In this document: piece by piece, positions 56,082 through 61,049 of the stretch
Numbering within the stretch: the first letter of the stretch is position 1
How the letters are laid out: every line of letters begins with the position of its first letter
Assembly (NCBI GenBank): GCA_024372495.1
Contig: CP099977.1
Coordinates: forward strand, 2,914,001 to 2,978,000
Direction of reading: 5' to 3'
Length of the DNA: 64,000 nucleotides
From: Pseudarthrobacter sp. Fe7
Lineage (GTDB): Bacteria; Actinomycetota; Actinomycetes; Actinomycetales; Micrococcaceae
Position numbers and translations under genes: made by a program
The notes under the pieces: generated by a model
The model's input: the letters and a program-made list of their open reading frames with translations, nothing else
What the model was told of the DNA's origin: nothing
Database searches by the model: none

Positions 56082-56610
56082 CAGGTGTCCTTTCCTGGCC
56101 GCCAGATCGTGGTGACTGCGACGAAGGCTATGGCGAGCATGGCCAACAGATAGATGGTGCCCATGGCGCTTGCAAGCCCGGGGTCACCGAAGCGGATCAT
56201 GGTCCGGTAAACGAGCAGGCTCATGGTTTCGGATGCGGATTGGGGCCCCCGTTTGTCTGGATAAGGATGGTGTCAAAAGCCCTCGCTGCGTCGATACCGC
56301 GGACGACGAGCGCGACGGCGATGACCGGGCGAAGCAGCGGGAGGATGATGCGGAACAGAAGTGATGGCGCCCGGGCGCCATCGAGCCTGGCCGCTTCGAT
56401 GAGATCCCCCGGGATGTTCTGCAGCCCGGCGAAGAGCACCAGACACATGAACGACGTGGTCAGCCAGATGTCCGGGACAGCGACGGAGAACAGCACGATG
56501 TCAGGGTTCGAGAGCCAGCCGATCTGATTTGGGTTCTGCAGGATGCCCGCTTCGTTCAGCAATGTGCCGAGCAGCCCGAAGTTGTCGATCATAAGGGTCC
56601 CCATCTGCAC
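56081..56610 (-). pseudogene. ABC sugar permease, MalF type, 5'-truncated and frameshifted
   Basis: Only the C-terminal 170-180 residues remain, starting near QMGTLMIDNFG and including the EAA loop LIEAARLDGARAP. A frameshift in the G-run 56242-56245 (plus strand) interrupts NGGP-QSASETMSLLVYRT; with one more base the chain ends at 56081 in WRPGKDT. The first about 120 residues, the promoter and any binding-protein gene are replaced by unrelated DNA. The truncation lies next to an ISL3 remnant. Confidence 0.8.
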
Positions 56611-56619
56611 CCCGCCGAC

Positions 56620-56838
56620 GAGGACTTGTTGTATGACTTTTATGCGGTGGACTCGGACGCCTACGACGGCAGCGAAAGTACGGCACAGCCCGACCCCACC
56701 GCTGATAACCCGCTGCCTGTGGCCCGGACACGGGCGCCCGGTAGCGACCCTAAGAGACTCCTCACCGTCCGTCCGCCCAAGGCCCAACACCCCGGCGAAA
56801 TCATCCTCAACTCTGACACGGCTGACGACCAGAGCTGA
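56620..56838 (+). other. Foreign C-terminal coding fragment
   Basis: A plus-strand frame reading LYDFYAVDSDAYDGSE to the end ILNSDTADDQS and a stop at 56838 has good codon bias but no start, and lies between the truncated permease and the transposase remnant. It looks like the tail of an unrelated gene brought in by the same rearrangement. I cannot name it. Confidence 0.4.
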
Positions 56839-56869
56839 ACAGAAATCCACCCCCGATTCATCGATGCAA

Positions 56870-57590
56870 AAGGGTTGTCACGTTTGCGGTGCAACTGTTG
56901 CGCAGACTCTTTTGCCGAGCCGCGGGAACGAGGGCCACCGCCAGGAACGGGGTGTTCGATCGCGGTGTTGTTGGCTTCCACTTTCGCGGTTGTCGCACCA
57001 ATGACGATGAGGACTTCGAACTCTTTCCACCACCGGCAGACCGTCCGCCCGAGCCGGTTGGTTTCGGGCTGCGCGGCTCGCGCCACCAGTGTCTGAAGCC
57101 GATCTTTCGCGGCGGCCGCATCGGCGAGGGAACCGGTGGCCAGCATGGCCCGTAGCTGTTCTTTGACCAGCCAGGCCGCCTGCAGTTTCCCGGTGGCATC
57201 GTCGCTTGTGAACACGGTGCTGAGCCTGTCCCGTGCCCGGTCCGAGAGTGTGTCCCCGGCTCGCAGGAGCAGCCTCCGGCTGGCCCAGACCGGGTCGATG
57301 GAGCGCCCCCGCCGGCCGTGGACCTGTTGGGTGAGGCCCTGCCGGACTTCGGTGAGCATGTCGTTTCCGAGCTTGACCAGGTGGAACGCGTCGACTGAAA
57401 CAGCGGTGCGTGGCAGCCACATCCGCAGGGCCTTGCGGATGTGGCTGACGGGTCGGTGGCAACGACCTGCACGCCCAGGCGCCATTAAAGCGGGCGGGCG
57501 AACAGCCAGTCCCCGACACGCCGCGGGTGCCCGCCAAGCCGGAGGAAAGTCGAGTGGATCGAAGCCCCGCGTGTTGTGACATCCAACGTC
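56870..57590 (-). mobile_element. ISL3-family transposase remnant
   Basis: The minus strand encodes a decayed ISL3-type transposase: VSVDAFHLVKLGNDMLTEVRQ (second catalytic Asp region), TEVRQGLTQQ, then WWKEFEVLIVIGATTAKVEANNTAIEH with the terminal acidic region. The N-terminal third is missing and frames shift several times. I find no clear terminal repeats. Its insertion or later deletion explains the loss of the 5' end of the fructan transporter genes. Confidence 0.7.
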
Positions 57591-57632
57591 TGTGGTCAAG
57601 ACAGCTGCCTTGCTATACGGCCAGTCTTCAAG

Positions 57633-59168: not shown

Positions 59169-60005
59169 TCAGGTACTGCGTTGTCCTGTGTGTCCGGTAC
59201 GGTGGGGTGTCTCGACTGGGGTGTCGGGGCGAAGGCCCCATTCGGCCCAGGACCCGTCGTAGACCCGTACACGCTCGCGTCCGAGAATTTCGGTGAGCAC
59301 GTACCACGCGGTGGCCGCACGGCCCCCAACGGTACAGTACGTGATCAGTTCGTCCTCTCCTTCGAGCCTCCGGCACGGGCATTGCCCGGCGCAGGCTCCT
59401 CGACCGGGCGGAAAACGCCTTTTTGGTCGTAGAGATCGCCGAACGGCCGGTGGACGACGGTAGGGATGTGCCCGGCGCGGCCTCCTGGTTCCATTCCGCC
59501 CGAGGGCCAGAACCGTTCACCGGCGTACTCGGACTCGGAGCGGACATCCAGAATAGTTGTTCCAGCACGGCCGATGGCTTCCCGCGCGGCCGGCACGTCG
59601 GCGAACAGCCTATGGTTCCGTTCGGGGAGCTGGTACGGCGCCGCCTCCACAGGGATCGATGACGTGCCGTAGGGGTGTCCCTGGGCGCGCCAAGCATGGC
59701 GGGAGCAGTTCAGGATGCGGACATCGGCGTGCCCGTAGAGCTTGAGCAGCCAATAGCCGAGTGCCGGGCGTAGCCGTAGCACACAACCGTCGAGGCCGGG
59801 CCGATGCCGGATCGAGCCAAGAGGTGTTCGATGGATTGCGGCCGACCGGGCGATACCGGTCGTCTTTGAGGTCTGCGTAGACGTTCCACAGGACGGCGCC
59901 GTCGACGTGCCATTGATTGTAGGCGGCCGCGGACACGTCCACTTCGACGACGCGGACCGAAGGATCGTACAGATGATTTGCCAGCCAGATGGGTGCGATG
60001 AGCAT
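59169..60005 (-). CDS. Two-domain rhodanese (sulfurtransferase), four frameshifts
   Basis: The product is a thiosulfate/3-mercaptopyruvate-type sulfurtransferase of about 280 residues with an inactive N-terminal and an active C-terminal rhodanese domain. ATG 60005 begins MLIAPIWLANHLYDP; the second domain carries TILDVRSESEYAG and the active loop CTVGGRA. The chain needs four corrections: one missing base near 59837, one in the C/G run at 59765-59767, and two extra bases at 59394/59395 and 59367/59368, both AGGCTC for AGCTC (restoring VEE-LRRAMPV and PE-LEGEDELITYC). It precedes the MFS gene. The start lies 24 bp from phased SARP-type repeats. Confidence 0.75.
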
Positions 60006-60028
60006 GTCCACAGTCTGCCCGCCTGTCC

Positions 60029-60068
60029 TTGGCCCAAGGTTGGCCCAACGTTGGGCCCACCTTGGCGG
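60029..60068 (+). promoter_or_regulatory. Four 11-bp-phased heptamer repeats, probable SARP operator
   Basis: TTGG occurs at 60029, 60040, 60051 and 60062, an exact 11-bp period. The heptamers are TTGGCCC, TTGGCCC, TTGGGCC and TTGGCGG, each followed by 4 bp. SARP proteins are known to bind such direct heptamers with 4-bp spacers overlapping the -35 region. On the minus strand CAGACT at 60012-60017 could be a -10 placing the transcript start at or near the rhodanese ATG. A SARP gene lies 229 bp to the right. Confidence 0.65.
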
Positions 60069-60296
60069 CGTAGCCTCTCTGCCTATTCCACTTGGATCCA
60101 CCCCAGCAGATCCTCGCGGCTGACGGAACGAAGGAGCGCCGGATGGTCGCTGGCGATGTGGCCGCGGATTGCTCCGATCACTTCCTCGTCAGTATCGCCG
60201 CGGACGACGAACCCGCATTCACATCGGATGAGCTTAGCCACAACGACCTCCCAAAACTAATAGGGCCTTTCCAGCGGCCCATGCGATTATGGTGTC

Positions 60297-61049
60297 ATGA
60301 CCGTGCAGTCAGCGCTGCGCCTGCAGATCTGCGGGCCGCTGGTTGTGGAGCGGGACGGGCTCAGGCTCGATCACGGCCTGCCCGGCCGTCAGGGACGCCT
60401 GCTGTTCACCTACCTCGTCATCAACCGGCACCGTCAGGTAGCCCGCGACGAGCTCATCGACGCCTTATGGCGCTCCCCCGATTCCGCCGGGAACGACGCG
60501 CGCCTCAACCCGTTGATCTCCAAGCTTCGCCACGTCTTAGGTCCGGAGGCCGTGGATGCTCGCGTCACTGTCCAGCTTCACCTCCCCAACGCGTGGATCG
60601 ACCTCGAAGCTGCCATGGAGGCAATTCACCGCGCCGAGTCCGCCGTGGCTCAGAAGGACTGGACTCGTTCCTGGGCGCCGGCCCTGGTCGCCTTGTTCGT
60701 CGCCGAACGCGGATTCCTGCCTGGAGAGGATGCCGATTGGATCGACCAAACCCGCAACCATCTCGCTGAAATCCGGCTCCGATCCCTGGAATGTTACGCC
60801 GCCGCCGAGCTCGGCATCGGCGGCGCTGAACTCGCCGGCGCCATCCGTGCCGCCCGCAGACTCATCTCCCTGGACCCTCTGCACGAAAGCGGCCACCGCT
60901 ACCTGATGCAGGCTCTCGCCGCCCAGGACAACCTGGCCGAGGCGCTGACCGTATACCGCCTGCTGTCCGACCTTCTCCGCGACCAACTTGGCATCTCGCC
61001 CAGCCCCAGGACCCGAGCGCTCTACCAGCAACTCCTCGAACAAACCTGA
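60297..61049 (+). CDS. SARP-type transcriptional activator
   Basis: This 250-residue protein has the SARP layout: an OmpR-like winged helix (residues 8-95, with LLFTYLVINRHRQVARDELIDALW and NPLISKLRHVLG) followed by a bacterial transcriptional activator domain (about 100-248) of helical repeats (SGHRYLMQALAAQDNLAEALTVYRLLSDLL). No NB-ARC or TPR extension is present, so it is a small SARP. It is divergent from the rhodanese-MFS pair. The phased repeats in the intergenic region are a likely target. Such regulators usually activate secondary-metabolite genes, none of which are seen here. Confidence 0.88.
   Translation: MTVQSALRLQICGPLVVERDGLRLDHGLPGRQGRLLFTYLVINRHRQVARDELIDALWRSPDSAGNDARLNPLISKLRHVLGPEAVDARVTVQLHLPNAWIDLEAAMEAIHRAESAVAQKDWTRSWAPALVALFVAERGFLPGEDADWIDQTRNHLAEIRLRSLECYAAAELGIGGAELAGAIRAARRLISLDPLHESGHRYLMQALAAQDNLAEALTVYRLLSDLLRDQLGISPSPRTRALYQQLLEQT

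What the first reader, a model, noticed from the sequence alone, without database searches (positions are those of the whole stretch)
60029..60068. Four TTGG heptamers in exact 11-bp phase between a SARP gene and a rhodanese gene
TTGG at 60029, 60040, 60051, 60062, with near-identical heptamers and 4-bp spacers, is the pattern SARP activators bind. It ends 24 bp from the rhodanese ATG, with a possible -10 (CAGACT) compatible with a leaderless transcript. The regulator beside it is a small SARP. This suggests control of a sulfurtransferase-exporter pair, not a classical antibiotic cluster.
Basis: partly seen in the sequence, partly recalled or inferred. Interest (0 to 1): 0.7.

Follow-up and report, generated by a model that had tools for sequence, protein, structure and literature searches.

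The report
SARP operator array controlling a sulfurtransferase
A row of four evenly spaced short DNA repeats is very probably the docking site through which a small antibiotic-type activator protein (SARP) switches on a sulphur-transfer enzyme, a job outside the antibiotic gene clusters where this activator family is usually studied.

Summary
In detail: TTGG at 60029, 60040, 60051, 60062, exactly in 11-bp phase. It is a conserved operator, not chance. All eight close orthologous loci (Arthrobacter, Specibacter) keep four repeats: CCAA columns 16 of 16 invariant, spacers 6 of 21. More distant loci keep a looser xCAA array in 11-bp phase. It stays at the promoter of the rhodanese gene, or of a DUF1059-rhodanese operon, in 17 of 19 rhodanese-bearing loci and through four gene orders. 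In the 21 arrays tabulated the last repeat lies 11 bp from a -10-like hexamer, the AfsR/afs-box register. On the rhodanese strand the repeats are CGCCAAG-type heptamers, close to the PimR/SanG/PolR site CGGCAAG. A genome with a similar rhodanese but no SARP ortholog lacks the array. Best reading: the adjacent 250-aa SARP binds the array and activates a leaderless rhodanese transcript. Binding and activation are inferred.

Against: seven of 29 SARP-bearing loci lack an array of three or more. DUF1059 (invariant C-x-C/H-x4-H) is a steadier SARP neighbour than rhodanese.

The parts
60029..60065 (-). SARP-type operator: four CCAA-core repeats in 11-bp phase (TTGG on +), xxCCAAx heptamers with 4-bp spacers on the rhodanese coding strand
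60012..60017 (-). -10-like hexamer CAGACT, 11 bp downstream of the last CCAA and 6 nt before the rhodanese ATG
   Evidence: same 11-bp and 6-nt distances in the 9 close rows; [TC]A at that place in 12 of 12 divergent arrays
59184..60005 (-). two-domain rhodanese-type sulfurtransferase gene, in three pieces in different frames in this assembly; intact (272-286 aa) in 7 of 8 close orthologous loci
   Evidence: the left end is that of the tblastn match
60083..60241 (-). DUF1059 mini-protein gene (52 aa, GTG start, GGAGG-like sequence before it) between the array and the SARP gene
   Evidence: Pfam PF06348 24.9 bits, cut-off 21.1
60297..61049 (+). small SARP (250 aa): winged-helix DNA-binding domain plus BTAD
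   Evidence: Pfam BTAD 79.4 bits; phmmer to EmbR and AfsR; AF2 model pLDDT 93, Foldseek TM 0.80-0.82 to AfsR
60285..60290 (+). possible -10 of the SARP gene (GATTAT), 6 nt before its ATG; it also looks leaderless
   Evidence: sequence; inference

Best explanation
The four repeats are the operator of the neighbouring small SARP, in the promoter of the rhodanese gene. SARP protomers bind side by side, one per 11-bp unit, over the place where a -35 element would be. The unit nearest the gene ends 6 bp before the -10, so the bound SARP can hold sigma region 4 and RNA polymerase as AfsR does at the afs box. In Arthrobacter this yields a leaderless rhodanese mRNA. Shown here: repeats, phase, spacing to the -10, conservation, co-occurrence with the SARP, and the predicted SARP fold. 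Inferred: binding, activation rather than repression, the sigma-adaptation step, and the leaderless start. The inducing signal is unknown; a sulphur or thiol-reactive species is a guess from the enzyme and from the C-x-C/H-x4-H DUF1059 neighbour.
For: Four repeats in 8 of 8 close orthologous loci. CCAA columns invariant 16 of 16, spacer columns 6 of 21 (Fisher p = 6e-6). In 24 loci (222,797 bp) chains of three or more CAA: 21 at period 11 against 0-7 at each of 20 other periods; CCAA chains 15 against 0. [TC]A starts 15 bases after the start of the last repeat core in 12 of 12 divergent arrays and 20 of 21 in all (L034 has GA); other offsets from 4 to 30 reach at most 5 of 12 in the divergent set. 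Array upstream of the rhodanese or its DUF1059 operon in 17 of 19 rhodanese-bearing loci, window included, in four gene orders. In 395 family genomes the SARP ortholog is in 8 and the rhodanese in 9, which include those 8. The ninth, G243, has no SARP match at the cut-off, none beside the rhodanese, and no array. Geometry and heptamer agree with AfsR (PMC10936776 passages) and PimR (PMC3367932 passages).
Against: No binding or expression data. L045 and L046 carry SARP, DUF1059 and a rhodanese of 31-34% identity but no array of three or more; L048, L051, L052, L087 and L090 carry a relative of the SARP without one. In L047, L049 and L050 the array faces away from the SARP gene with no recognised target. 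At offset 26, 14 of all 21 arrays also show [TC]A, through the start-codon region that the close loci share. The window's own rhodanese frame is broken. The residues matching AfsR T88 and R92 are P72 and K76, so base contacts must differ. Close loci are related, so their counts are not independent, and the offset was read from the same data.
Confidence: 0.82

Rival explanations
1. The SARP binds the array but represses the rhodanese promoter, relieved by a signal or by DUF1059.
For: The array covers the -35 region, which a repressor could block equally well.
Against: SARPs usually activate from such sites (passages of PMC10936776, PMC3367932, PMC10972967). The 6-bp distance from the last unit to the -10 matches the AfsR activating register.
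Confidence: 0.08
2. Another OmpR-type regulator that also reads 11-bp direct repeats, such as PhoP, uses the array.
For: The AfsR site at afsS is also recognised by PhoP (PMC10972967 passage).
Against: The array goes with the SARP ortholog: in the 395 family genomes the 4 with SARPs of at least 84% identity carry the exact array and the 4 with 62-64% a looser one. The SARP-less rhodanese genome G243 lacks it there. A core regulator present in all relatives would not be expected to give this pattern.
Confidence: 0.06
3. The TTGG direction is the transcription direction, and the array drives a rightward (antisense or SARP) transcript.
For: TTGG resembles part of a -35 element; in L047 and L049 an array lies upstream of the SARP gene in that orientation.
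Against: By eye, the distance from the array to the right-hand gene varies among the close loci and no conserved -10 follows it there, whereas the leftward 11-bp distance is constant.
Confidence: 0.03
4. The feature is a palindromic operator or an RNA hairpin.
For: 16+16 bp inverted repeat, 94% complementary, in the window.
Against: Absent from the eight close orthologous loci; only a 12-nt overlapping palindrome in L039. No U-run follows, and no Rfam match reaches its threshold in the window.
Confidence: 0.01

Closest known systems
AfsR and the afs box of afsS (Streptomyces coelicolor)
   Same: SARP fold (TM 0.80-0.82); 11-bp direct repeats; last unit 6 bp before the -10 if the -10 is -12 to -7, which I infer (PMC10936776 passages)
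   Different: AfsR is a large SARP with NOD and TPR domains; two repeats rather than three to five; another base core; T88 and R92 replaced by P72 and K76; target afsS, not an enzyme gene (the last recalled)
PimR, SanG and PolR operators (SARP-LAL)
   Same: CGGCAAG heptamers, with 4-bp spacers at the main PimR site, on the coding strand of its target; here CGCCAAG-type (PMC3367932 and PMC5930380 passages)
   Different: Those are SARP-LALs in antifungal or nucleoside clusters; the PimR site lies upstream of the -35, the present array next to the -10; two or three repeats there, four in the close set here
EmbR (Mycobacterium tuberculosis)
   Same: Same winged-helix plus BTAD fold
   Different: EmbR carries an FHA domain (PMC10936776 passage); the protein here ends after BTAD

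Membership tests
SARP family (small SARP) | N-terminal OmpR-type winged helix followed by BTAD | tested here: met
   BTAD 79.4 bits (cut-off 22.1); Trans_reg_C 25.6 bits, just under its cut-off 26.2; AF2 pLDDT 93 and Foldseek TM 0.80-0.82 to AfsR
SARP family (small SARP) | No NOD, TPR or LAL part | tested here: met
   250 aa, no other domain above its cut-off
SARP family (small SARP) | Operator of heptameric direct repeats in 11-bp phase near the -35/-10 of the target | tested here: met
   By sequence and conservation only
SARP family (small SARP) | Binds the repeats and activates transcription | not testable with these tools
   needs EMSA, footprint and in vitro transcription
SARP family (small SARP) | Sits in and controls an antibiotic gene cluster (usual role, not structural definition) | tested here: inconclusive
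   Conserved neighbours are rhodanese and DUF1059; the neighbourhood was not screened for biosynthetic genes
PimR-type SARP-LAL operator | CGGCAAG heptamers set upstream of the -35 | tested here: not met
   Core in the close set is CCAA and the array abuts the -10

The most novel reading that the evidence does not exclude
SARP plus DUF1059 is a regulator-sensor pair: the 52-aa DUF1059 protein, with invariant C7, C9, H28 and H33 (a zinc-finger-like ligand set), senses a metal or reactive sulphur species and gates the SARP. The pair has been re-wired through one portable 11-bp array to different genes: rhodanese, a methyltransferase-like gene, a DUF1059-led operon.
Probability: 0.27. Interest if true: 0.75.

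Novelty: new variant of a known kind. Interest (0 to 1): 0.58.

Why it matters
SARPs are known chiefly as switches of antibiotic clusters. Here a small SARP appears dedicated to the promoter of a sulphur-metabolism enzyme, with a fixed register to the -10 kept through several gene orders. That gives a natural data set for the SARP base code and for the sigma-adaptation geometry, and it points to a neighbour (DUF1059) of unknown function.

Tried and rejected
Palindrome or hairpin reading: rejected, window only. Exporter as a conserved partner: not supported within the flanks held. Rightward promoter: no constant spacing or -10 by eye. Chance: rejected for this locus, although a bare 4xTTGG does occur by chance at family scale: 4 of the 8 genomes with a match, of 395, have no SARP ortholog at the cut-off, and the reversed control pattern matched in 12 genomes by my count of the table. 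Plasmid-borne copies: no match in the plasmid collection at E <= 1e-20. Other sites in 15 genomes with a strict pattern: 12 matches in 7 genomes, 10 at SARP loci and 2 strays; 8 genomes, the window's own and G243 among them, had none, so the pattern misses true arrays. Neither stray is followed by [TC]A at the array distance. One search used a spacing that I had mis-typed by one base and is not used as evidence. DUF1059 fold search: no match at E <= 0.001. No tRNA and no Rfam match at threshold in the window.

Full report
Observation. Four TTGG tetramers stand at 60029, 60040, 60051 and 60062. The 3-repeat pattern was expected 0.03 times and found twice; in 200 simulated windows the 4-repeat array did not appear. 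The genome held (4,465,898 bases, 2 contigs) has one such array, and no 3xCCAA array outside it.

Gene anatomy. To the right, on +, is the SARP (60297-61049, 250 aa). Then come the array, a -10-like CAGACT and the rhodanese ATG at 60005. The rhodanese reading is split over three frames in this assembly; the pieces are 87-90% identical to the L035 protein. Seven of eight close orthologous loci have it intact, 272-286 aa; L041 is also broken. A completeness of 78.87% in two contigs would fit assembly indels, but this was not tested.

Conservation, close set. A scan of genome contigs with the SARP gave 39 loci. The eight at 80-90% identity (L034-L041, seven Arthrobacter and one Specibacter) keep four repeats in 11-bp phase. 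Aligned without gaps from the ATG, with the window as ninth row, the 16 CCAA columns are invariant and 6 of 21 spacer columns are (p = 6e-6). In those 9 rows the distance from the last CCAA to the hexamer is 11 bp and from the hexamer to the ATG 6 nt; no ribosome-binding sequence is seen between them. This is leaderless geometry. By eye, the distance from the array to the DUF1059 stop varies. The palindrome of the window is absent from the eight.

Conservation, distant set. A chain of at least three CAA in 11-bp phase is present in 22 of 29 SARP-bearing loci plus the window. Those without are L045, L046, L048, L051, L052, L087 and L090. L053-L072, with SARPs of 25-34% identity, were scanned only for 3xTTGG (none) and rhodanese (none). 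Period 11 stands alone among periods 5-25: 21 chains against at most 7 (24 loci). Twenty-one arrays were tabulated (near-duplicates L050 and L084 left out), counting a unit as xCAA or xCAG. The unit nearest the gene is followed, 11 bp after its core, by a hexamer starting [TC]A in 20 of 21 (L034: GA) and 12 of 12 in the divergent set: TAGAAC, TACAAA, TACAAC, CAGGAT, TAGTCT, CATCAT, CACGCT, TAGCGT. The offset was read from the same data; no other offset from 4 to 30 exceeded 5 of 12 in the divergent set, while in the full set offset 26 reached 14 of 21, through the start-codon region that the close loci share.

Gene order. The array stays with the promoter while the genes move: SARP divergent from DUF1059, then array, then rhodanese (window, L034-L041, L083, L084); rhodanese convergent with DUF1059 (L042); rhodanese downstream of the SARP (L043, L085, L086); DUF1059-rhodanese operon with the array before DUF1059 (L044, L088). 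Of 19 loci with a rhodanese match, window included, 17 have the array; L045 and L046 do not. Outside the close set, L042-L044, L088 and L091 show leaders with GGAGG-like sequences. Without a rhodanese match the array precedes a methyltransferase-like gene (L003), a DUF1059-like gene (L091) or an unassigned gene (L089). These three rest on reading translations, not on a family search.

Co-occurrence and negative control. In 395 genomes of the family, the SARP (E <= 1e-25) is in 8 and the rhodanese (E <= 1e-55) in 9, which include those 8 (Fisher 6.6e-16, not corrected for kinship). The ninth, G243, has a 55% identical rhodanese with no significant SARP or DUF1059 match within 1.5 kb and no array. 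The exact 4xTTGG pattern is in 8 of 395 genomes: the four with SARPs of at least 84% identity, at that locus, and four others without a SARP ortholog. The four genomes with SARPs of 62-64% identity carry the looser array. Some G genomes appear to be the same organisms as named L loci (G414 and L036, for example, have the same array and flanking protein stretches), so the sets overlap.

Regulator. The protein matches BTAD (79.4 bits) and, just under its cut-off, Trans_reg_C; phmmer finds EmbR and AfsR over nearly the whole length. The AF2 model (pLDDT 93, 19 sequences) is nearest to AfsR in initiation complexes (TM 0.80-0.82). The AfsR base-contacting residues T88 and R92 (PMC10936776 passages) align with P72 and K76; K76 is at least 90% conserved in an alignment of 23.

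Mechanism. In AfsR the two 11-bp repeats span -40 to -19 and the SARP dimer holds sigma R4 over a poor -35. If the -10 is -12 to -7, an xxNCAAx-N4 unit here ends at -19: the same register. On the coding strand the units read CGCCAAG and variants, next to CGGCAAG of PimR, SanG and PolR (PMC3367932, PMC5930380 passages). One SARP per unit and activation by sigma adaptation, with further units giving cooperative binding, is the best reading. Binding and activation are inferred.

DUF1059. By tblastn it lies beside the SARP in 21 of 29 loci: all 18 with a rhodanese match and also L003, L087 and L089; L047-L052, L090 and L091 gave no match, though L091 has a DUF1059-like ORF by reading. C7, C9, G10, H28 and H33 are invariant in 14 sequences, including a 29% identical one. 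The model has two strands and helices (pLDDT 92.6) with no PDB fold match. A metal site is inference.

Literature. Searches of the held library for DUF1059 with rhodanese (none), SARP with sulfurtransferase, transcriptional activator and Arthrobacter (none), SARP with its full name and rhodanese (none) and DUF1059 alone (two papers listed, not opened) found no description of this unit. One search (three of four terms, 33 papers, 15 listed) showed no 'rhodanese' in any of the 15 listed. A SARP review, seen only in passages, has no occurrence of 'sulfur' (PMC10972967). Subscription papers are mostly not covered.

Noticed in passing
window 59184-60005 (-): Rhodanese gene spread over three frames in this assembly; L041 also carries a broken copy, seven other close loci intact ones. 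Genome completeness is 78.87% in two contigs.
   Followed up: partly
window 60083-60241 (-): DUF1059 mini-protein with invariant C-x-C ... H-x4-H; beside the SARP in 21 of 29 loci by tblastn.
   Followed up: partly
window 56221-57599: Fragments that read like a transposase (my reading of the translations, no family search) beside a truncated ABC-permease-like frame.
   Followed up: no
L045:2681-4087: Protein with rhodanese and metallo-beta-lactamase domains (Pfam), perhaps persulfide-dioxygenase-like, near a SARP-DUF1059-rhodanese locus; hints at sulphur metabolism.
   Followed up: no
L047:5931, L049:5952: Array upstream of a SARP gene in Solirubrobacter (in L047 a 1187-aa frame), facing away from it, with a CATCAT hexamer at the same 11-bp distance and no recognised target gene.
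   Followed up: no
L003, L087, L090: Methyltransferase-like genes (by reading translations) lie beside relatives of this SARP where no rhodanese match was found.
   Followed up: no
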